7,480 nt of DNA, from contig JAFWCP010000359.1 in the NCBI GenBank assembly GCA_017536845.1, positions 1 to 7,480 of the forward strand, written 5' to 3'. The position numbers were made by a program, and so were the translations under genes. Below are positions 1-7,480 of this stretch, in pieces (position 1 is the stretch's first letter; every line of letters starts with the position of its first letter). A model generated the notes under the pieces. That model saw nothing but the letters and a program-made list of their open reading frames with translations. It was not told where the DNA came from and ran no database searches. The stretch comes from Solobacterium sp. Its GTDB lineage: Bacteria; Bacillota_I; Bacilli_A; Erysipelotrichales; Erysipelotrichaceae.

Positions 1-30
1 AAATCCTCTTTTGCAGAAGTGTGGTGACTC
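1..30 (+). repeat. Left terminal inverted repeat of the IS
   Basis: Thirty bases starting aaatcctcttttgcag are the exact reverse complement of 1237-1266. The repeat starts at the first base of the window, so more of it may lie outside. Confidence 0.9.
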
Positions 31-48
31 AGATTAAGATGGATCAAT

Positions 49-1110
49 TCAACCTTCGCTATCATCTTCTTCATAGAAGATTTCAGGCATTCTTGATGTT
101 CTGAAGAAGTCTCTGTATCTGAGACGTACTTTCTTCCTGACAGCCATGTCAAGGAACAGTTCTACCTTCTTCAGCTTATTTGACGGCGGATTCATGATAA
201 AGACAAACAGATTCAGGTAACCTGATATATGATCACGCAGGAATCCTGAATGAGAATCAAGGAAGATCTTAAGCAGATTATGGATCTTGTTGATCGGATC
301 CAGTGGGTTATTGATATCTTCCAGTTTCTTAAGATCTTCAGATCTGTATGTCTCTGCCTTAAGGCTGAGCTTGCTGATCAAAGCATCATGAGATCCATCT
401 GAATCATGGATGATTGTTGATTTGGCAGCGATATGGTCCTGAAACGAATTCAATGTATCATTACTTGATGGTTTGCCGTTCCCTTCATAGATACAGTATA
501 TTCTCCGCTTGTCTTTAGCTACACCGATACAGAGTTGATTCTTTGACAGCCCACGCAGCAAGGTTCCATCCTCATTATGGACTATGTCCTCTTTCCTCAC
601 TGAGTAATAGGTTTCATCCAGCCATACCTTCCCGGAAAGCAGGATATTGTCCTGGCTTCCATCCAGAACCATAAACACCTTCTCCAGCCAGTATCTTGAA
701 GTGGTAAAGGCATTTCTGTTGTTCTTGGAATCAGAATTCAGGCTGACAAAGTCGAACAGGTTCAGCAGATACTGCATCCATTCGCCAATTGAAAGTTTAT
801 GATCTTCAAATATCGTGCCGGTGGTAACACTGAATGACTTCCCGCACCTCTTACATTGGTATCGTGTAAGTCCTGTGCTGTATTTGCCATATCTGATAAA
901 CTTCTGTCCCCCGCAATAGGGGCATGATTCCGGAGTGTATGTATTAAACAACTCCGCATCATTCATTTCGGCAAGGCTCTTGTGATGATCATCATAGCTT
1001 CTGTGATAAACAGTGCGTAGATACCCCTGCAGAGGGGTAAGATGATCCACGTCTAAATCATCCCACGGTGTTGCCCGTCGGGATACTGACATCTTTTGCG
1101 GTGTTTTCAT
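49..1110 (-). CDS. IS1595-like family transposase
   Basis: Predicted transposase of 353 residues that would bind the terminal repeats and cut and join the element. Residues 63-89 form a zinc ribbon (Cys63, Cys66, Cys86, Cys89; CPYC...CKRC). The catalytic domain shows a first acidic residue in WLDETYY (Asp165), a second in HDSDGSH (Asp236 or Asp238), and a C-terminal block with INKIHNLLK and YLNLFVFI, as in IS1595/ISXO2-type enzymes. No frameshift or stop is seen, so it may be active. The ATG at 1110 is chosen because AAAGGA lies about 9 nt upstream. An in-frame TTG at 1149 would add 13 residues but has no ribosome site and falls inside a leader stem. The exact IS subgroup is uncertain. Confidence 0.85.
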   Translation of the reverse strand: MKTPQKMSVSRRATPWDDLDVDHLTPLQGYLRTVYHRSYDDHHKSLAEMNDAELFNTYTPESCPYCGGQKFIRYGKYSTGLTRYQCKRCGKSFSVTTGTIFEDHKLSIGEWMQYLLNLFDFVSLNSDSKNNRNAFTTSRYWLEKVFMVLDGSQDNILLSGKVWLDETYYSVRKEDIVHNEDGTLLRGLSKNQLCIGVAKDKRRIYCIYEGNGKPSSNDTLNSFQDHIAAKSTIIHDSDGSHDALISKLSLKAETYRSEDLKKLEDINNPLDPINKIHNLLKIFLDSHSGFLRDHISGYLNLFVFIMNPPSNKLKKVELFLDMAVRKKVRLRYRDFFRTSRMPEIFYEEDDSEG

Positions 1111-1190
1111 GGGTGGTAGTCCTTTCGGCTCAGCCGACCAGTCACACAAAGGACTACCACATCGCTAATATGTGACTGACCGGCTGAACC
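1111..1190 (-). promoter_or_regulatory. Structured transposase leader with interleaved stems over the ribosome site
   Basis: In transcript order the leader has segments A (1190-1171), B (1160-1148), C (1146-1127) and D (1125-1113). A pairs with C over 20 bp, with three G-U pairs in the minus-strand RNA and no mismatch. B pairs with D over 13 perfect bp. The pairings interleave (A-B-C-D), so they are either mutually exclusive or form a pseudoknot. D contains the AAAGGA ribosome site and ends 2 nt before the ATG, so B:D pairing would hide the start. Hairpins that hide the start site are a known way for IS elements to limit transposase made from read-through transcripts. The pairing is seen directly; its function is inferred. 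Confidence 0.6.
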
Positions 1191-1219
1191 CATTAGCTGA
1201 ATCGTTACGATCCGCTAAT

Positions 1220-1228
1220 AGTATATCA
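1220..1228 (-). promoter_or_regulatory. Candidate transposase promoter (extended -10)
   Basis: On the minus strand the sequence TGATATACT is an extended -10 (TGn followed by TATACT, 5 of 6). No good -35 is present at 16-18 bp, which extended -10 promoters can tolerate. Transcription would start near 1213 and include all four stem segments of the leader. Confidence 0.45.
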
Positions 1229-1236
1229 CTAAGCCG

Positions 1237-1266
1237 GAGTCACCACACTTCTGCAAAAGAGGATTT
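1237..1266 (-). repeat. Right terminal inverted repeat of the IS
   Basis: This is the exact reverse complement of 1-30, with no mismatch over 30 bases. It lies about 10 bp upstream of the extended -10 proposed for the transposase promoter, so part of the promoter's upstream region is within the repeat, as in many IS elements. Confidence 0.9.
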
Positions 1267-1439: not shown

Positions 1440-2048
1440 TCAGTCTTTGTATGTGATCTTCAGATCCCGGAAATACCCTTCCGTTCCGATGTCGACAAAC
1501 AGTCCGACCGCGCCTCTTTCGCCCTTGCCATGGATCATCTCATCAACCGTCAGCACCGGCTGATCATTGACATAGAATGTTCCTTTTTCATCCTCAATCA
1601 CTGCCTTGATGGTGATCCATTCATCCAGGGCAATATCCGCCTTTGAATCATACTTTGTAATGCCATGGTTCCGGAAGTATTCAAACGTATAGTTCGGATA
1701 GGAAAAATACTGCGTGCCATGGGAAAGGCGAACCGGATTGTCCGTCATCCGCGGCCCGTTGGTCGGACGGATATACCAGGATTCAAAAGCACTGTCATCC
1801 GCATTGATGCGGAAAGCCAGGCCGATAAAGCCGCGGGCAAGATCCGGCGCGTCCGGCAGAAGCTTACTTAAAACCTTCACCTCAATTGTGCCGTTATGGA
1901 AGTTCTCCGTACCGGCAATCCTGGCATATGTATTCTCATCATACATGTACAGCTTATCTTTGTGCTTGACGACCCGCACACATTCAAAACCGTCGAATTC
2001 CATGACTTCGGCATGGACATAGCTTTCAATCAGATCTTCTTTTTTCAT
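1440..2048 (-). CDS. Cytoplasmic concanavalin-like (DUF1080/LamG-like) domain protein
   Basis: Protein of 202 residues with no signal peptide or membrane segment. The alternating strand pattern and blocks such as NFHNGTIEVKV, GFIGLAFRIN, WYIRPTNG, DEWITIKAVIED and GAVGLFVD are typical of the beta-sandwich of concanavalin-like/DUF1080 domains (related to 3-keto-glucoside hydrolases and LamG). Most such proteins are secreted glycan-active enzymes or binders; a cytoplasmic single-domain version has no assigned role that I know of. The start has AGGAGG 5 nt before the ATG. It is the last gene of the minus-strand operon, 70 bp after the oxidoreductase, and may also have its own promoter. No catalytic residues can be named with confidence. 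The fold call is good; the function is unknown. Confidence 0.7.
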   Translation of the reverse strand: MKKEDLIESYVHAEVMEFDGFECVRVVKHKDKLYMYDENTYARIAGTENFHNGTIEVKVLSKLLPDAPDLARGFIGLAFRINADDSAFESWYIRPTNGPRMTDNPVRLSHGTQYFSYPNYTFEYFRNHGITKYDSKADIALDEWITIKAVIEDEKGTFYVNDQPVLTVDEMIHGKGERGAVGLFVDIGTEGYFRDLKITYKD

Positions 2049-2118: not shown

Positions 2119-3072
2119 TCATGCTTCTTCCATTGTTACGACAATCTTGCCGTTGACGCCTTTCTCCTGTGCCTTGACGGCTTTCTTAAGATCCCGGAAA
2201 GCAAAATGGGCGCCAATAAAGGGAGTGATCTTCTTCTCATCAAGGAAACGGAAGATATCCGTCATGACTTCCTGGGTCGGATAGTTTGAGAAAAACCCGG
2301 TCAGATACACTTCATTGGGAATCTCCTTAATCGGGTCAAACCGGTTCAGATAATACTGTCCGCCTAAGATACCGGTATTGCATACAATGCCGCCCCGGTA
2401 CACACAGCGCAGTGAATCTGCCAGTGTCCGCGGCCCTACCAGTTCAAGAACCTTATGGGCATACACCGTACCGCCGATCTTTCCCGTATCCAGGATCCCT
2501 TCTGCACCAAGATCCGTGATCAGATGCATCTTCTCCTTTTTGTGGGTTGTGCCGATCACGACGCAGCCATACGCCTTTGCCAGCTGTATTGCCGCATAGC
2601 CCAACGCTGATGTTGCCCCCCTGATCAATAATGTTTCCCCTTCTTTCAGCTTTAAGGACTGGAATAACGAACCCCATGCTGTAAAGAAGGTTTCCGGCAC
2701 TGCCGCAAGATACTTTGTTGATAACGCAGAAGATACATGGAATACATTCTTCACCGGTACTGCCGCATACTCCTCATACGAACCGTTGAAGCTTCTTCCC
2801 ATACCGCCCATCAAGGCACATACAGGATCCCCTTCCCTGAATTTCTCATCCATGCTTTCTGCAATTACCCCGACACACTCAATGCCGGGCACAATCGGCT
2901 TACGAATATACCCCGCCTGGATTTCACTCGTCCTTAAGATCAGCTCCGAATGGTTCATGCCAAAGCCCAGGATCCTGATGACGACAATCCCCTTTTCCGC
3001 ATGCGGCTGTTCTGTCTCTGTCAGCACGATATCATCACTGTTTGTAATCCCTCTCAATAATAATGCCTTCAT
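2119..3072 (-). CDS. Zinc-free MDR-family NAD(P)H oxidoreductase (quinone oxidoreductase-like)
   Basis: Protein of 317 residues from the medium-chain dehydrogenase/reductase superfamily. An N-terminal GroES-like domain carries GFGMNHSEL (residues 36-44) and PGIECVGVI (62-70). The Rossmann domain has the nucleotide-binding GATSALG motif at 152-158. The usual catalytic Cys after the first GroES strand and the four-Cys structural zinc lobe are absent, which points to a quinone oxidoreductase/enoyl reductase type rather than an alcohol dehydrogenase. The ATG overlaps the stop of the radical SAM gene as ATGA, with GGAAGGAGAT just upstream, so translation is probably coupled. An ATG 21 bp upstream is in frame but lacks a ribosome site. 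Coupling suggests a shared pathway, possibly redox tailoring or self-protection, but the substrate cannot be read from the sequence. Confidence 0.85.
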   Translation of the reverse strand: MKALLLRGITNSDDIVLTETEQPHAEKGIVVIRILGFGMNHSELILRTSEIQAGYIRKPIVPGIECVGVIAESMDEKFREGDPVCALMGGMGRSFNGSYEEYAAVPVKNVFHVSSALSTKYLAAVPETFFTAWGSLFQSLKLKEGETLLIRGATSALGYAAIQLAKAYGCVVIGTTHKKEKMHLITDLGAEGILDTGKIGGTVYAHKVLELVGPRTLADSLRCVYRGGIVCNTGILGGQYYLNRFDPIKEIPNEVYLTGFFSNYPTQEVMTDIFRFLDEKKITPFIGAHFAFRDLKKAVKAQEKGVNGKIVVTMEEA

Positions 3073-4109
3073 TGTCCCATCTCCTTCCAGCATTGCGGGT
3101 CTGCATCATACATGTTATGCGTATAGCCATACGTCACCGAAGGGCAGCCTCTGCAGTATGCCAGCAGTTCACATCGGCTGCACTTTGTGAATCTGCCATA
3201 CTGCCGGTATCCTTCATATGCTTCACCTGTCCAGATGTCATACAGTTCATTATCAAACACATTTCCCACCGGTGAAGGCATCCGCCGGCAGGCACATACC
3301 GTCCCGTCGGGCAGGATTGTCATATGGCTGCGGCCAAGATTGCAGCCATCCACAACCGTATCTGCAGGAATGTCTTTCCGGGGATGAAACAGCCCTTTTT
3401 CATACAGGTACAATGTCCAGAGATGGTCCTTCAACTGATAGGTAGTTTTTGAATCCTTATGGGCAAGATACCTTTCCCAGCAGGTATCCAGAAATGCCTT
3501 ATATTCCAATGGCGTCATGTGGATATCCGGGTCATATGCCTTTTCTGTCGATGTCGGGCAGTATCTGCCGACCGCATAGACATCCACGCCAAGCTCATCG
3601 ACCAGGTCAATCAAGGCAGGAATGTCTTTGTGGTTGGTTTTCGAAACCGTCGTCATGACAGCCGCCCACATGCCGGATTCCCTGATCATCCGGATGGCGG
3701 AAAGGGTGGCTTTGAAACTGCCCGGTTTGCGGAACATATCATGCGTCTGTTCCAGCCCATCCAGTGATACCTGGTACTTCACACAGCCAAGGCGCTTCAT
3801 TTCCGCACATCTTGCCGGGGTGAGATGGAACGGATTGCCCATGATGCAGAAACGGATCTGCCTTGCATGGAAGTATTCCAGAAGCGTATGAAAATCAGGA
3901 TGCAGGATCGGATCACCGCCGGTCAGGTAAATATAAGGCGTCCTGTGGATCGTCTCACAGAACCTTACAATCTTATCCGTGACTTCCTTCATTTTTTCCA
4001 GAGGCATACTGATCAAAGAAGGATGTCCTTCCGAAAAGATATAGCAATGTCTGCATCTTTGGTCACATTCATCGGTAATATGCCACTGTACGGCAAAATA
4101 ACTGGCCAT
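3069..4109 (-). CDS. Radical SAM/SPASM peptide maturase, ACGX-repeat system
   Basis: Predicted enzyme of 346 residues that modifies the ACGT-repeat peptide encoded upstream. The radical SAM core opens with Cys15-x3-Cys19-x2-Cys22 (CDQRCRHCY), which binds the [4Fe-4S] cluster that cleaves S-adenosylmethionine, followed by GGDP at 64-67. The C-terminal SPASM domain has Cys256, Gly269-x4-Cys274, then Cys310, Cys313, Cys319, Cys322 and Cys340, enough to hold auxiliary clusters as in thioether-forming and other peptide-modifying enzymes. The N-terminal QWHITDECDQRC context agrees with the family I recall as 'radical SAM/SPASM, ACGX system'. No separate PqqD-like recognition domain is seen. The ATG is fixed by AAGGAGG about 8 nt upstream; a TTG 36 bp earlier sits in a hairpin. 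The reaction (thioether crosslink, epimerisation or other) is not determined by the sequence. Confidence 0.88.
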   Translation of the reverse strand: MASYFAVQWHITDECDQRCRHCYIFSEGHPSLISMPLEKMKEVTDKIVRFCETIHRTPYIYLTGGDPILHPDFHTLLEYFHARQIRFCIMGNPFHLTPARCAEMKRLGCVKYQVSLDGLEQTHDMFRKPGSFKATLSAIRMIRESGMWAAVMTTVSKTNHKDIPALIDLVDELGVDVYAVGRYCPTSTEKAYDPDIHMTPLEYKAFLDTCWERYLAHKDSKTTYQLKDHLWTLYLYEKGLFHPRKDIPADTVVDGCNLGRSHMTILPDGTVCACRRMPSPVGNVFDNELYDIWTGEAYEGYRQYGRFTKCSRCELLAYCRGCPSVTYGYTHNMYDADPQCWKEMGQ

Positions 4110-4127
4110 CGTTTTTTCCTCCTTGGA

Positions 4128-4153
4128 AAGGACGCTGTATTTCAAGCGTCCTT
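4128..4153 (-). promoter_or_regulatory. Intercistronic hairpin between peptide and maturase genes
   Basis: A perfect 9-bp stem (4153-4145 with 4136-4128, extendable by one G-U) encloses an 8-nt loop in the 60-bp gap. No real T-tract follows, so it is more likely a partial terminator or an RNA-stabilising 3' end than a full stop. Such a hairpin would give more peptide mRNA than enzyme mRNA, as is common for RiPP operons. The stem is seen; the role is inferred. Confidence 0.6.
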
Positions 4154-4169
4154 CGAATGATCCTTGTAA

Positions 4170-4283
4170 TTATTCAGGATCCTTGGTGCCGCAGGCAGGA
4201 GCCGGTTCAGGATCCTTTGTCCCACAGGCGGGTGCCGGATCAGCTGTGCCGCAGGCTGCTGAGAAAAGATTCATATCCAACAT
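4170..4283 (-). CDS. ACGX-repeat RiPP precursor peptide (three CxxxD repeats)
   Basis: Peptide of 37 residues. A very short leader (MLDMNLFSA, residues 1-9) precedes three tandem units beginning ACGT at residues 10, 19 and 30. The units are ACGTADPAP, ACGTKDPEPAP and ACGTKDPE. Each Cys (11, 20, 31) is followed four residues later by Asp (15, 24, 35), and the units are joined by Pro/Ala/Glu. It matches the ACGX-repeat peptides that sit next to a dedicated radical SAM/SPASM protein, which is the next gene here. The start is well supported: AAGGAGGA lies 8 nt before the ATG. A longer in-frame version reaching back to 4403 would overlap the divergent regulator and has no support. No protease, transporter or immunity gene is recognised in the cluster, so the mature form, its export and its function are unknown. 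Confidence 0.88.
   Translation of the reverse strand: MLDMNLFSAACGTADPAPACGTKDPEPAPACGTKDPE
4173..4256 (-). repeat. Three tandem coding repeats in the precursor peptide
   Basis: Units at 4256-4230 (27 nt), 4229-4197 (33 nt) and 4196-4173 (24 nt) encode ACGT-x-DP modules. Synonymous changes occur between units (TGC/TGT, GGC/GGG, ACA/ACC) while ACGTxDP is kept in protein, which indicates selection on the peptide rather than a very recent DNA duplication. Confidence 0.85.
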
Positions 4284-4306
4284 CTTTGCTTCCTCCTTAT
4301 ACGCAT

Positions 4307-4331: not shown

Positions 4332-4358
4332 GCACTGTGCAAAATCAGACAAACTGTC
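4332..4358. promoter_or_regulatory. Candidate operator dyads between the peptide operon and the TetR gene
   Basis: Two short perfect dyads lie in the divergent intergenic region: GCAC-T-GTGC at 4332-4340 and GACA-AAC-TGTC at 4348-4358. The second overlaps the -35 of the regulator promoter, where binding by the regulator would block its own transcription. TetR proteins commonly bind dyads between themselves and a divergent target. The arms are only 4 bp, so the operator role is tentative. Confidence 0.4.
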
Positions 4359-4373
4359 GGAATTTGATATAAT
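4346..4373 (+). promoter_or_regulatory. Promoter of the TetR-family regulator
   Basis: A perfect extended -10, TGATATAAT at 4365-4373, has a weak -35 (CAGACA, 4346-4351) 16 bp upstream. Transcription would start near 4380, directly at the AGGAGG ribosome site (4381-4386), giving an mRNA leader of only about 14 nt. Confidence 0.7.
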
Positions 4374-4393: not shown

Positions 4394-4975
4394 ATGAGCA
4401 CATACGACGACGCCAGAGAGAAAACCAAACAGAAGATCTTCAACGCCTACTGGACCCTGTACCTGGCCAATCAGAAAACCACCATAGCGAAAATCAGTGA
4501 AGCGGCAGGCATCCACAGATCCACATTCTACTTCTATTACGAAACCGCGGATGATGTTCTCAGGGAAATTGAAAACCGCCTGTTTGCGGAACTGAAAGCA
4601 GTCCTTTCAACAAAGAACCGCAGAGAGAAGGAGTATCGGGCAGTGATGGTGGAACTGCGGGATATGTTCCGGGAAAACCGGAAATACCTTGTCCCGCTGG
4701 TAGTACAGTACAAAGACAATACCTTTGCGCTCAGGTACAGAGAATTCCTGAAGGAGAACTTTGCGGAAGACATCGGCCTGGATTACCGTTCCGGCAATGC
4801 GGTCAAAAATGATGCTGCAAACTGTGTGCTGGCCGGCATGATTGAAATGATGCTGTATGAACTGGCCAGTGAGATCCTTCCTCACGAGTATACCTACCTC
4901 ATCGGCAACGGCATTCTATACAAAGGCGTGGCCAGAACCATGACCGAAGACCTCAACATCAGGTTCGGCCGATAA
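4394..4975 (+). CDS. TetR/AcrR-family transcriptional regulator
   Basis: Protein of 193 residues, a normal length for the family. The N-terminal helix-turn-helix is at residues 30-49 (IAKISEAAGIHRSTFYFYY), with the typical RSTFYFYYET sequence of a TetR recognition helix. The C-terminal domain is a helical ligand-binding and dimerisation region of unknown ligand, ending in a helix with IEMMLYELASE. The start is fixed by AGGAGG 7 nt upstream. It is divergent from the precursor peptide gene with only 110 bp between them, which makes it the likely regulator of the RiPP operon and of itself. An inducer cannot be predicted. A bidirectional terminator lies 20 bp past the stop. Confidence 0.9.
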   Translation: MSTYDDAREKTKQKIFNAYWTLYLANQKTTIAKISEAAGIHRSTFYFYYETADDVLREIENRLFAELKAVLSTKNRREKEYRAVMVELRDMFRENRKYLVPLVVQYKDNTFALRYREFLKENFAEDIGLDYRSGNAVKNDAANCVLAGMIEMMLYELASEILPHEYTYLIGNGILYKGVARTMTEDLNIRFGR

Positions 4976-5049: not shown

Positions 5050-5883
5050 TCAATGTTCCAGGCCCAGGATTCTTCCGGCATTGCGAAAGAGGATGTTTTC
5101 TTTGTCCTGCTGTGAGATGTGTTCCCCAAGCACAGCCTGGACATACATCCGGGGATTGCAGATGGGATAATCCGTGCCGAACAGCAGACGCTGCGAACCG
5201 ACTTTCTTTACGGCAGAGGCCAAAAGGCCATAGCGGAAAAGGCCGGTGCCGGAAAGGTCCAGATACAGGTTCGGGTATTTCTCCATCCGCTCCACATGCA
5301 GAAGGAAGTCCTCCCGCTGGCCGGGATGGGCAGCAACAAATGTGACATCAGGGTTGTTCCTGACCATGGCTTCGGTTTCCTTTGGCCATTCGGGCATGGT
5401 ATGGAAGCTGACCACCATGCCGTATTCCCCGGCCAGATGCAGGATTTCCCGCAATGCTTCACTGCTGTAATCATGCCCGGATGCTGCCCAGCCATGCAGA
5501 TAAGGGACAAGCTCACCGACCAGCTTTACCCCGGCTTTGTGCATGAACGCCACTTCTTCCAGGGAATCCTGCAGATAGCCGGGATGGACATGGAACCCCG
5601 GCAGGTAGAAATCTCCGTATATCTTTTTCAGTTTCAGGGCATCACGGTTCAGCGTTCTGATTTCATTAAAGCTGCTGACCGGGCCTCTTTTGAATGTGTT
5701 GAGCACAGACCCGCAGATTAAGGAAATCCCGGCCTTTCCCACATCTTCACGTACCTCTTCCGTCGGCAGGTAAAAGTCTTCCAGGTATACGCCCATATTC
5801 TCTTCCTCACGCAGGTAAGGATGTGTATGAAAGTCGATGACGCTTCTGTTTTCAATGATATTGTTTTCCCATTCCCGTTCCAT
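5050..5883 (-). CDS. Metal-dependent amidohydrolase (amidohydrolase-2-type TIM barrel)
   Basis: Protein of 277 residues. It has the family metal ligands in order: His19-Thr-His21 after the first strand (VIDFHTH), Glu124 (VGEL), His161 (SFHTM), His186 (AAHPG) and Asp238 (FGTDYP). This is the pattern of COG2159-type hydrolases and decarboxylases; the substrate is unknown. It is predicted cytoplasmic. The frame stays open 26 codons further upstream, but the ATG at 5883 is chosen because AAGGAG lies 8 nt before it and because the upstream extension overlaps a good promoter. It is separated from the RiPP locus by a two-way terminator and probably forms its own unit. Confidence 0.85.
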   Translation of the reverse strand: MEREWENNIIENRSVIDFHTHPYLREEENMGVYLEDFYLPTEEVREDVGKAGISLICGSVLNTFKRGPVSSFNEIRTLNRDALKLKKIYGDFYLPGFHVHPGYLQDSLEEVAFMHKAGVKLVGELVPYLHGWAASGHDYSSEALREILHLAGEYGMVVSFHTMPEWPKETEAMVRNNPDVTFVAAHPGQREDFLLHVERMEKYPNLYLDLSGTGLFRYGLLASAVKKVGSQRLLFGTDYPICNPRMYVQAVLGEHISQQDKENILFRNAGRILGLEH

Positions 5884-5908
5884 TGCATTCTCCTTCAGTT
5901 TTTTCAAT

Positions 5909-5923
5909 AGCAGGCATCCTGCT
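5909..5923. promoter_or_regulatory. Dyad at the amidohydrolase transcription start
   Basis: A perfect 6-bp inverted repeat, AGCAGG-CAT-CCTGCT, overlaps the predicted start of transcription. It could be a repressor operator or a 5' mRNA hairpin; nothing in the sequence decides between them. Confidence 0.4.
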
Positions 5924-5931
5924 TCCTGCAC

Positions 5932-5961
5932 ATGATAGCACCTTGCAATTTTCATGGTCAA
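5932..5961 (-). promoter_or_regulatory. Promoter of the amidohydrolase gene
   Basis: On the minus strand, TTGACC (5961-5956, 5 of 6) and TATCAT (5937-5932, 5 of 6) are 18 bp apart. Transcription would begin near 5925, about 42 nt before the chosen ATG. It starts inside or just before a dyad at 5909-5923 (AGCAGG-CAT-CCTGCT). Confidence 0.65.
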
Positions 5962-6114: not shown

Positions 6115-6807
6115 ATGAAATCCTGTATGCAGAAATATACCGTTGCCATTGTCGATGCTTCCGGACCCGATCTTGAAAAACTGTGCTGCCTTGCGGAGGA
6201 AGTGATGCCAGGATGCCAGCTGTCCTGCTTTTACAGCCTGCAATCCTTTGCCATGCAGGAAAACGTCTATGACCTTGTGCTGCTGGATGTGCTGACAGGA
6301 GGCCATACCAGCATAGCCTTTGAGGAACAGATCGCACGTAAGGCAGGCTGTATTCTCTATACAGGCACTTCCCTGAACATGATGGAGTTCGCCTTTCACT
6401 CCAAAGCGGCAGGGTTCCTGGTCAAGACAGACCCGGATGTCAAGAACCTGGCAAAGATGGCATCCGTCCTGCGAAGGCTTCCGAAAACCATTCATGTTGA
6501 TACAAACTGCGGGCCGGCATGGATTCCGGAAAACAGAATCATCTTTGCGGAAAAACAGGGCTCATACATCCTGTTGCACCTGACTGCCCATAGAACACTT
6601 GCCAGCCGCATGATGACGCTGAAAGAGCTGAATGAACAGACAGGAAACCGCCTTGCACAGGCAGACCGGAAAACACTCATCAACCCTTGCCACATCCGGA
6701 AAATCCATCATCACACGGTATATCTGACAGAAGAAACGGAAATCAGGCCATCCCGCCGTCAGCTTGAAAATATCAAGGAGCTCTTCCTGAGAGGCATCAT
6801 GCTGTAA
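6115..6807 (+). CDS. LytTR-family response regulator-like protein
   Basis: Protein of 230 residues. Residues 8-125 resemble a receiver domain: VAIVDAS with Asp14, the phospho-acceptor candidate Asp58 in LVLLDV, Thr83 in YTGTS and Lys104 in GFLVK. The usual acidic pair before the first helix is reduced to one Asp (Ala15 at the partner position), so phosphorylation may be weak. Residues about 133-228 form a LytTR DNA-binding domain (IIFAEKQGSYILLHL, LAQADRKTLINPCHIRKI), of the AgrA/VirR type. No histidine kinase or peptide pheromone gene is adjacent. The ATG at 6115 has GGAGG only 1 nt away, too close for normal initiation, and a second ATG at 6127 is 13 nt away. Start choice is therefore uncertain and a leaderless mRNA is possible. 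Confidence 0.85.
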   Translation: MKSCMQKYTVAIVDASGPDLEKLCCLAEEVMPGCQLSCFYSLQSFAMQENVYDLVLLDVLTGGHTSIAFEEQIARKAGCILYTGTSLNMMEFAFHSKAAGFLVKTDPDVKNLAKMASVLRRLPKTIHVDTNCGPAWIPENRIIFAEKQGSYILLHLTAHRTLASRMMTLKELNEQTGNRLAQADRKTLINPCHIRKIHHHTVYLTEETEIRPSRRQLENIKELFLRGIML

Positions 6808-7155: not shown

Positions 7156-7353
7156 ATGCTGAAAATCGGAGAATTTTCAAAACTTGCCAGAATCAGTGTC
7201 AGAATGCTACGCCACTATGATGAGATCGGTCTTCTGAAACCGGCAGAAACTGACCCCTTCACGGACTACCGGTATTACAGGGAAGATCAGCTCCCGACAG
7301 CAGGGCGTATTGCCGCCCTGAAGGATATGGGTTTTTCTCTTGCAGATATCGTC
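7156..7353 (+). CDS. MerR-family regulator, 3' part missing at a sequence junction
   Basis: The first 66 codons encode a MerR winged helix-turn-helix: LKIGEFSKLARISVRMLRHY, then DEIGLLKPAE, DYRYYREDQL and IAALKDMGFSLADIV. These are the standard blocks of multidrug-sensing (BltR/TipA-like) MerR proteins. AGGAGG lies 7 nt before the ATG. From about 7354 the frame stays open to the window end, but the residues no longer resemble a MerR coiled coil, and the same bases read well as a permease on the opposite strand. The gene is therefore cut by a rearrangement or by an assembly join. The effector domain is missing and the inducer cannot be predicted. Confidence 0.85.
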
Positions 7354-7356
7354 AGT

Positions 7357-7480
7357 CGGCAGCACGTGGACCAGGATGGTGCGGAACTTGTTGGAGCCCG
7401 TGGCCTTGGCCGCCTCCACGTATTCGTTGCCCTTGATGGACATGACCGTGGAGCGCATCATACGCGCGCCGCTGGCGATG
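7357..7480 (-). CDS. Fragment of an ABC transporter permease (DppC/OppC-like), both ends missing
   Basis: The minus strand encodes about 41 residues with the EAA loop of binding-protein-dependent permeases: ARMMRSTVMSIKGNEYVEAA, then AKATGSNKFRTILVHVLP. The pattern EAA-x3-G-x9-(I/V)-x-LP contacts the ATPase subunit. The order R-S-x-V...YVEAAKATG is most like peptide or nickel permeases of the DppC/OppC type. Family similarity ends exactly after LP, where Asn is expected and Thr-Asp-Asp follows. GC is about 63% by hand count (76 of 120 in 7361-7480), against 52% in the preceding 90 bases. It is probably from another locus or another genome. Confidence 0.75.

What the first reader, a model, noticed from the sequence alone, without database searches (positions are those of the whole stretch)
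3069..4283. ACGX-repeat RiPP: precursor peptide next to a dedicated radical SAM/SPASM maturase
A 37-residue peptide with three ACGT modules sits 60 bp upstream of a SPASM-domain radical SAM enzyme, both with strong ribosome sites. I recall ACGX-repeat peptides and their partner enzymes as families defined by comparative genomics. I do not know of a characterised product, so the chemistry may be undescribed.
Basis: partly seen in the sequence, partly recalled or inferred. Interest (0 to 1): 0.85.

Follow-up and report, generated by a model that had tools for sequence, protein, structure and literature searches.

The report
Cysteine-repeat peptide operon with dedicated reductase
A gut-type bacterium carries a tiny cysteine-repeat peptide next to the radical enzyme that probably modifies it, and relatives show that this pair almost always comes with its own reductase and regulator, which points to a job in redox chemistry inside the cell rather than an exported antibiotic.

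Summary
A 37-aa peptide with three ACGT modules (4170-4283, -) lies 60 bp upstream of a 346-aa radical SAM/SPASM enzyme (3069-4109, -) scoring 494.5 bits against NCBIfam rSAM_ACGX (cut-off 400). The peptide itself escapes NCBI's target_ACGX model. An ACG-repeat peptide precedes 82 of 84 related enzymes; the two misses are contig-truncated. In a 398-genome draw it accompanies 9 of 9 enzymes over the cut-off and 0 of 21 fetched below it.

The two-gene picture is incomplete. A dedicated NAD(P)H-type reductase follows: MDR (as here) or an unrelated nitroreductase, exactly one in 58 of 61 full-context loci, with 8 swaps at least on the enzyme tree. Regulators are TetR (here, with a shared operator-like site) or redox-type HxlR. 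No exporter or protease recurs among the neighbour clusters listed. ACGX genomes are enriched for SirTM sirtuins.

Best reading: an intracellular multi-cysteine peptide serving redox or electrophile stress, with Cys-to-Asp/Glu (C-X3-D) thioethers the likeliest modification. The pair is known; operon logic and short-leader subtype appear new. Chemistry and function are untested.

The parts
4170..4283 (-). acgA-type precursor peptide, 37 aa, leader of 9 residues, three ACGT modules, each Cys followed by Asp at +4 (C11/D15, C20/D24, C31/D35)
   Evidence: similar peptides upstream of 82 of 84 related enzymes; not hit by TIGR04341
4245..4256 (-). ACGT module 1 (residues 10-13)
   Evidence: sequence
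4218..4229 (-). ACGT module 2 (residues 19-22)
   Evidence: sequence
4185..4196 (-). ACGT module 3 (residues 30-33)
   Evidence: sequence
4292..4297 (-). ribosome-binding site AGGAGG of the peptide gene
   Evidence: sequence; present in most of the aligned intergenic regions
3069..4109 (-). acgM-type radical SAM/SPASM maturase, 346 aa; C15-x3-C19-x2-C22 cluster motif; seven conserved Cys in the SPASM part (C256, C274, C310, C313, C319, C322, C340); no RRE-like N-terminal extension
   Evidence: TIGR04340 494.5 bits, cut-off 400; PF04055 and PF13186; alignments (C19 nearly invariant, the others invariant); AlphaFold2 model mean pLDDT 91.9
4118..4123 (-). ribosome-binding site AGGAGG of the maturase gene
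2119..3072 (-). dedicated MDR-type reductase (quinone oxidoreductase/PIG3-like, 317 aa, zinc ligands absent by eye); start overlaps the maturase stop by 4 nt (ATGA, 3069-3072)
   Evidence: next to the maturase in relatives; strong homologues only in ACGX genomes of the sets searched
4346..4361 (.). putative TetR operator, CAGACAAACTGTCGGA (reverse complement matches TCCGACN5GTCTR), between the divergent TetR and peptide genes
   Evidence: same pattern between TetR and peptide in all 12 other loci that hold the TetR gene, and in none of the other 101 loci fetched; binding not shown
4394..4975 (+). divergent TetR-type regulator, 193 aa
   Evidence: PF00440 20.3 bits, below its cut-off of 24; same gene in 13 of 61 full-context loci, each time with the MDR
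1440..2048 (-). 202-aa 3-keto-disaccharide-hydrolase/LamG-like protein downstream (weak matches only); a homologue lies near the operon in one other locus (L036), so probably not part of the core

Best explanation
The locus is a compact RiPP-type operon (acgA-acgM-reductase, divergent TetR) making a modified peptide that stays in the cell and works in redox or electrophile stress. Steps: (1) shown by genomics: acgA and acgM are a precursor-maturase pair. (2) inferred: AcgM has no RRE and the peptide almost no leader, so it recognises the repeated A-C-G-S/T/A module itself, as anSME recognises a short motif (recalled), and modifies every module. (3) inferred, about 0.4: the modification is a thioether from each Cys to the Asp/Glu four residues on (C-X3-D/E), as PapB does. 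(4) shown by genomics: the operon goes with one dedicated NAD(P)H-type reductase, MDR or nitroreductase, interchangeable in evolution; inferred: it acts on the modified peptide, either as a tailoring reduction or in repeated turnover. (5) inferred: the product is a multivalent cofactor or thiol carrier, made when the TetR or HxlR regulator senses its signal.
For: Pairing. Reductase: of 61 loci with enough flank (of 84), 33 MDR only, 25 nitroreductase only, 2 both, 1 neither within 3.5 kb (its MDR starts 3.2 kb downstream); fewest changes on the maturase tree, 8. Genome-wide, 398 genomes: MDR at E<=1e-60 in 3 and nitroreductase at E<=1e-30 in 6 genomes, together the 9 ACGX genomes with no overlap, 0 of 389 others (cuts chosen after seeing the lists); by coordinates 8 of the 9 are the gene next to the maturase and 1 (G330) is one gene away. 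Regulator: HxlR or TetR in 58 of 61; two HxlR proteins tested are nearest the redox regulators RrpB/RrpA, below those models' cut-offs, and 47 of 51 keep a Cys before the KW motif, 4 unscored; operator-like site in 13 of 13 TetR loci. HypR, YodB and CatR of the MarR/DUF24 family sense quinones, HOCl and diamide, and a nitroreductase and azoreductase of their regulons detoxify diamide and quinones (PMC6943732, passages). C-X3-D/E: 67 of 82 peptides have an acid at +4 in every CG unit that is not the first of a CGxxCG doublet; 8, all from methanogens, have none, and 8 peptides have one at +3 in every unit (sequences). PapB makes six such links in CX3D (PMC9413430, passages). No RRE: barrel starts at residue 4. 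Fold: SuiB, anSME, TigE, SkfB, PqqE.
Against: No chemistry or expression was measured. By sequence the maturase is nearer SbtM (199.5 bits) and heme b synthase AhbD (132.1) than PapB (55.9, cut-off 340), so the thioether rests on spacing alone, and spacer repeats inside one peptide are not independent. The first Cys of the 126 CGxxCG doublets has Cys, not acid, at +4. The window's own regulator is TetR, not HxlR, so the stress reading leans on relatives. L083 has its MDR 3.2 kb away with opposite-strand ORFs between. One MDR at E 5.7e-53 (34% identity, one stop inside) occurs in a genome without an enzyme over the ACGX cut-off (G311), and ten nitroreductases at E 6e-26 to 9e-21 do too. In the genome draws only the best few first-look candidates per genome were scored. 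Absence of an exporter or protease was judged from the 40 largest neighbour clusters printed, not by a transporter search; one ABC-ATPase cluster occurs in 5 of 84 loci, in mixed orientation, median 4.1 kb away.
Confidence: 0.58

Rival explanations
1. Two-step tailoring. AcgM oxidises or dehydrogenates the Cys side chain (thioaldehyde/formylglycine-like, or a dehydro residue), and the reductase then reduces it, as the unrelated LanJA (MDR) and LanJB (flavin) enzymes both reduce dehydroalanine in lanthipeptides. The reductase is a biosynthetic enzyme and the end product need not be redox-active.
For: Two non-homologous reductases swap in the same slot, fewest changes 8, which parallels LanJA zinc/NADPH and LanJB flavin dehydrogenases (PMC11519912, passages; that LanJA is an MDR is recalled). 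anSME with bound Cys peptide is among the best fold matches (TM 0.73-0.76), and like anSME the enzyme has no RRE (anSME chemistry recalled).
Against: The MDR lacks zinc ligands as judged by eye on the consensus of 44; TM-scores do not separate anSME from SuiB; it does not explain redox regulators.
Confidence: 0.3
2. Ordinary secreted RiPP (antimicrobial or signal), exported and cleaved by general machinery.
For: Precursor plus SPASM maturase is the usual anatomy of sactipeptides and ranthipeptides (recalled); three loci lie on plasmids and the system crosses phyla.
Against: No exporter, protease or immunity gene recurs among the neighbour clusters printed; conserved partners are cytosolic-type redox enzymes and regulators; window-type peptides have almost no leader for a peptidase to remove.
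Confidence: 0.08
3. Metal or metalloid binding peptide, phytochelatin-like, with Cys-Gly repeats as ligands and the radical enzyme installing an extra ligand.
For: Two to eleven CG units per peptide, Asp/Glu close by.
Against: No metal transporter or metal regulator seen among the neighbour clusters printed (not searched for by family); does not explain the reductase.
Confidence: 0.08

Closest known systems
NCBIfam ACGX system: TIGR04340 rSAM_ACGX and TIGR04341 target_ACGX (RefSeq symbols acgM, acgA)
   Same: Maturase over the family cut-off; ACG-repeat peptide directly upstream; same order as Roseburia acgA-acgM.
   Different: Window peptide is short-leader and single-module and is missed by TIGR04341. 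The NCBIfam entries seen here name two parts; the reductase, regulator and operator-like site are added by this work. The full text of the NCBIfam entries was not available.
Ranthipeptides of the PapA/PapB (freyrasin) type
   Same: Multiple C-X3-D motifs, SPASM-type radical SAM enzyme (PMC9413430, passages).
   Different: PapB model scores 55.9 of 340; no RRE here, while the PapB paper describes an RRE-leader model; no reductase or HxlR/TetR partner known to me for PapB.
SbtM, thio(seleno)oxazole modification radical SAM maturase (TIGR04082)
   Same: Next-best family by sequence, 199.5 bits.
   Different: Below its cut-off of 350; SbtM has about 195 N-terminal profile positions that are absent here.
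LanJA/LanJB dehydroalanine reductases
   Same: One RiPP job done by either of two unrelated dehydrogenases (PMC11519912, passages).
   Different: No lanthipeptide synthetase seen; MDR here looks zinc-less.
SirTM/Zn-Macro extended operon (lipoylated GcvH-L, LplA, OYE)
   Same: In a subset of relatives Sir2 and macrodomain genes stand near acgA-acgM and an NAD(P)H-type oxidoreductase; the Roseburia pair tested is nearest SirTM 5a3a and Zn-Macros 8rsi, 5kiv.
   Different: Not present in this window; of 6 of 18 genomes or records with a GcvH match, five have it on another contig or outside the held locus by coordinates and one coincidence (L036) was checked and is not GcvH.

Membership tests
TIGR04340 rSAM_ACGX | whole-protein score at or over 400 bits | tested here: met
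   494.5 bits
TIGR04340 rSAM_ACGX | radical SAM CX3CX2C motif and SPASM domain | tested here: met
   C15, C19, C22; PF04055 78.2 and PF13186 46.2 bits, both over cut-off; alignment A3
TIGR04340 rSAM_ACGX | ACGX-repeat peptide nearby | tested here: met
   60 bp upstream
TIGR04341 target_ACGX | score at or over 28 bits | tested here: not met
   no TIGR04341 match up to E 10 for the window peptide; of 9 relatives scanned with it, 4 match it weakly (7.3-12.3 bits) and 5 not at all; Roseburia acgA scores 73.8
TIGR04341 target_ACGX | repeated ACGX modules | tested here: met
   three ACGT
Ranthipeptide (PapB type) | Cys to Asp/Glu beta/gamma-carbon thioether | not testable with these tools
   needs tandem mass spectrometry
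Ranthipeptide (PapB type) | C-X3-D/E spacing | tested here: met
   3 of 3 modules in the window; every non-doublet unit in 67 of 82 peptides
Ranthipeptide (PapB type) | PapB family model NF047865, 340 bits | tested here: not met
   55.9 bits
SbtM (TIGR04082) | 350 bits | tested here: not met
   199.5 bits
SirTM/Zn-Macro redox system | SirTM and Zn-Macro genes in the operon | tested here: not met
   none in the window; Sir2 near 15 and macrodomain near 12 of 61 full-context loci
Sactipeptide | Cys to alpha-carbon thioether | not testable with these tools
   needs tandem mass spectrometry

The most novel reading that the evidence does not exclude
The ACGX peptide is a genetically encoded thiol/thioether redox carrier that takes the place of lipoylated GcvH-L: matured by AcgM instead of being lipoylated, turned over by the MDR or nitroreductase instead of OYE, and in many genomes reversibly ADP-ribosylated (on its Asp/Glu) by the SirTM/Zn-Macro pair, whose targets outside the GcvH-L operon are unknown. 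Support: SirTM at E<=1e-20 in 7 of 9 ACGX genomes against 12 of 389 others of the same 398-genome draw (at E<=1e-70, 5 of 9 against 9 of 389), also where it is not adjacent (G001, G007); no GcvH match in 12 of 18 genomes and records with a Sir2 or macrodomain gene near acg (two of the 18 are plasmids and many are incomplete MAGs). The window itself shows no SirTM.
Probability: 0.17. Interest if true: 0.87.

Novelty: new variant of a known kind. Interest (0 to 1): 0.62.

Why it matters
The ACGX pair has sat in family databases as a precursor and a maturase without a role that I know of. If the reductase is an obligatory third part, the system moves from the pile of presumed antimicrobials to the small set of peptide-derived redox agents (PQQ and mycofactocin are the recalled examples), scattered over Bacillota, Bacteroidota, Spirochaetota and gut methanogens (by record titles). 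Alternation between two unrelated reductases gives an experimental handle: whatever both can act on must be the shared substrate. The SirTM link offers a candidate answer to a question that PMC11490716 (passages) leaves open, namely what SirTM/Zn-Macro pairs outside the GcvH-L operon modify.

Tried and rejected
Searching the window's own genome: none is held. Explaining the peptide as chance: rejected. Reading the longest TTG frame as the enzyme start: rejected, the ATG at 4109 has the ribosome site and matches relatives. A first neighbour count in which a fused ORF made ferredoxin-flavin proteins look like nitroreductases was replaced by a stricter one. L025 as a true enzyme without peptide: rejected, its upstream stretch is panB, which in L044 stands between peptide and enzyme. 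Literature search for ACGX gave 28 papers, 20 listed, none about RiPPs by title; acgM as a word start was swamped by ACGME papers, so a paper using only that symbol could have been missed. A script for long palindromes in the intergenic regions found no shared one; the shared site was seen on the alignment. Rows dropped: L002 (frameshifted enzyme) and L020 (a stop inside the matched stretch) from the tree, and loci with neither or both reductases from its change count; 23 of 84 loci without enough flank from the neighbour counts; four HxlR rows unscored. Fisher values treat related genomes as independent. Not used: second structure job, VIA-align, viral and metagenome scans, RNA tools.
Full report
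WHAT IS THERE. On the minus strand of the window, a 37-aa ORF (4170-4283) with three ACGT modules is followed after 60 bp by a 346-aa radical SAM/SPASM gene (3069-4109), whose stop overlaps the start of a 317-aa MDR-type reductase (2119-3072) in an ATGA. A TetR-type gene (4394-4975) is divergent. Both peptide and enzyme have AGGAGG 8 nt before their ATG. The enzyme scores 494.5 bits against TIGR04340 rSAM_ACGX (cut-off 400); next are SbtM at 199.5 (cut-off 350) and two families near 132. The peptide's only NCBIfam match up to E 10 is an unrelated one at E 4.5, although Roseburia acgA matches TIGR04341 with 73.8 bits. In alignment A2, 24 of 33 peptides match TIGR04341 at E up to 10, which is not the curated cut-off.

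PAIRING. A protein search found 2924 homologues of the enzyme at E<=0.001; some of the 120 listed are named ACGX-system proteins by their sources. The two misses are cut by contig ends behind panB (L041 by eye). In an even draw of 398 genomes from the phylum of Sporomusa silvacetica (the centre included), 9 have an enzyme over the cut-off, all at 546 bits or more, and the next best scores 241. Thirty matches of that search were fetched, one per genome: 9 of 9 over the cut-off have the peptide within 1.5 kb and 0 of 21 below it do. Other matches below the cut-off were not examined.

THE PEPTIDE. In 80 distinct peptides (82 loci) there are 406 CG units; the residue before Cys is Ala in 382, after CG it is Ser, Ala or Thr in 400. 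The number of units runs from 2 to 11 and 53 of 82 peptides contain CGxxCG doublets. In one search some peptide starts were taken too far upstream, the window's among them, and a few were cut by contig ends; this affects leader lengths but not the CG units. Of 280 units that are not the first of a doublet, 218 have Asp/Glu at +4. Counted by locus, every such unit is acidic at +4 in 67 of 82; 8 loci have none at +4, all from methanogens, and 8 loci have every unit acidic at +3 (the sequences show these to be the methanogen ones); at +2, +5, +6 and +7 the counts are 0, 0, 1 and 0. About half of the peptides (40 of 82) have an [S/T/I/V]AQ motif; the window type has only nine residues before the first module.

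THE THIRD GENE. Clustering of neighbours and a stricter recount give, for 61 loci with at least 1.2 kb upstream and 1.7 kb downstream: MDR only 33, nitroreductase only 25, both 2 (L010, L071), neither 1 (L083, MDR 3.2 kb downstream). HxlR 45, TetR 13, one or the other 58, a flavin-binding-like plus 4Fe-4S protein 21, Sir2 15, macrodomain 12, DUF1848 8, cupin 6. All 13 TetR loci have the MDR. On a maturase tree (82 rows plus two outgroups, quick method) the fewest changes between MDR and nitroreductase are 8; 34 of 80 inner branches are weak, so the number is rough. Strong homologues of the two reductases are otherwise rare: in a 50-genome set chosen by me (14 with ACGX, 36 of the draw without) the MDR is in 8 and the nitroreductase in 6 of the 14, complementary, and in 0 of 36 (E<=1e-20). 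In the whole 398 draw at that threshold the MDR is in 7 genomes, 3 of them ACGX (E<=1.9e-84), the rest at 5.7e-53 (G311) and 5.8e-22 or weaker; the nitroreductase is in 16, 6 of them ACGX (E<=2.8e-36), the rest at 6.0e-26 or weaker. So each of the 9 ACGX genomes holds exactly one strong match, next to the maturase in 8 and one gene away in G330; the cuts at 1e-60 and 1e-30 were set after seeing the lists, and only the best first-look candidates of a genome were scored. The flavin/4Fe-4S protein was sought in the 50-genome set only: 6 of 14 and 0 of 36.

REGULATION. Two HxlR proteins tested match PF01638 and are nearest RrpB/RrpA, below those models' cut-offs. PMC6943732 (passages) says that the MarR/DUF24 regulators HypR, YodB and CatR sense HOCl, quinones and diamide through an N-terminal Cys, and that azoreductase AzoR1 and nitroreductase YodC act in diamide and quinone detoxification. 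In the window's clade the regulator is TetR; the stretch between it and the peptide gene holds TCCGACN5GTCTR in all 12 other TetR loci and, as its reverse complement, in the window at 4346-4361, and the pattern is in none of the other 101 of 113 loci; a slightly different spelling of it occurred in 0 of 200 shuffles of the window. Binding is not shown.

STRUCTURE AND CHEMISTRY. The enzyme model (54 sequences, mean pLDDT 91.9, pTM 0.89) starts its barrel at residue 4, so there is no room for an N-terminal RRE. Best folds are BlsE, SuiB, TigE, anSME, SkfB and PqqE, with TM-scores of 0.61-0.76 that do not discriminate. PapB puts six thioethers between Cys and Asp of CX3D motifs and accepts zero to six residues between (PMC9413430, passages); this would also cover the methanogen spacing. 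PMC10470005 (passages) reports that FMN with NADPH can activate PapB, so the flavin/ferredoxin-like neighbour and the reductase could alternatively serve to reduce the maturase; I rate this lower for the reductase because MDR enzymes pass hydride (recalled).

SIRTM LINK. The Sir2 and macrodomain proteins of the Roseburia acg operon are nearest SirTM 5a3a (6.8e-65) and Zn-Macros 8rsi and 5kiv (names SirTM/Zn-Macro for these entries recalled, titles shown are Sir2 family protein and ADP-ribose hydrolases). PMC11490716 and PMC4518038 (passages) describe the SirTM operon with lipoylated GcvH-L and an OYE reductase and tie it to oxidative stress; PMC11490716 says that other targets of SirTM are unknown. 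In the 398 draw SirTM at E<=1e-20 is in 7 of 9 ACGX genomes and 12 of 389 others (Fisher 5.8e-9, relatedness ignored); at E<=1e-70, 5 of 9 and 9 of 389. In the 50-genome set it is in 11 of 14 and 0 of 36, the 36 being part of the 389. Three of the 7 are weaker cases: G341 has only 34% identity or a fragment, G330 a fragment at a contig end, G247 a gene in two pieces. So SirTM also occurs without ACGX and ACGX without SirTM. GcvH is found in 6 of 18 genomes or records chosen for a Sir2 or macrodomain near acg: in G006 and G009 on other contigs than the acg locus, in G418 and G421 at positions beyond the end of the acg contig, in G420 outside the held locus whatever the contig, and in G417 (L036) a coordinate coincidence was checked and is not GcvH. 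No paper held has both SirTM and radical SAM.

VERDICT. The enzyme is a member of a known family with a precursor subtype that the known model misses. The larger, apparently undescribed point is a regular, interchangeable reductase with stress-type regulation in relatives. Function and chemistry remain inferred.

Noticed in passing
window 1-1266: Complete-looking IS1595-like insertion sequence: transposase 49-1149 (-) between perfect 30-bp terminal inverted repeats at 1-30 and 1237-1266.
   Followed up: partly
window 7156-7480: A MerR-type gene loses its Pfam match after residue 65 while G+C climbs to 0.62-0.68 and the opposite strand reads, by eye, like an ABC-transporter permease; possible assembly junction or recombination point.
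   Followed up: partly
L044 430-1251; L025 3-455: A panB (ketopantoate hydroxymethyltransferase) gene stands between acgA and acgM in some Bacteroidota; why is unclear.
   Followed up: partly
L067, L071, L073, L079: A small cupin gene is inserted between peptide and maturase in these Bacteroidota loci.
   Followed up: no
L002 8001-9025: The maturase gene on the Methanosphaera plasmid is annotated as two reading frames although a peptide ORF and a reductase flank it; described only.
   Followed up: no
L093 1480-3177: The best enzyme below the ACGX cut-off (241 bits) sits beside a second radical SAM-like gene and a precursor-like ORF with a Cys-rich end: probably a different RiPP system.
   Followed up: no
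window 5050-5961 and 6115-6807: Amidohydrolase (-) and a LytTR-type regulator (+); no link to the finding seen.
   Followed up: no
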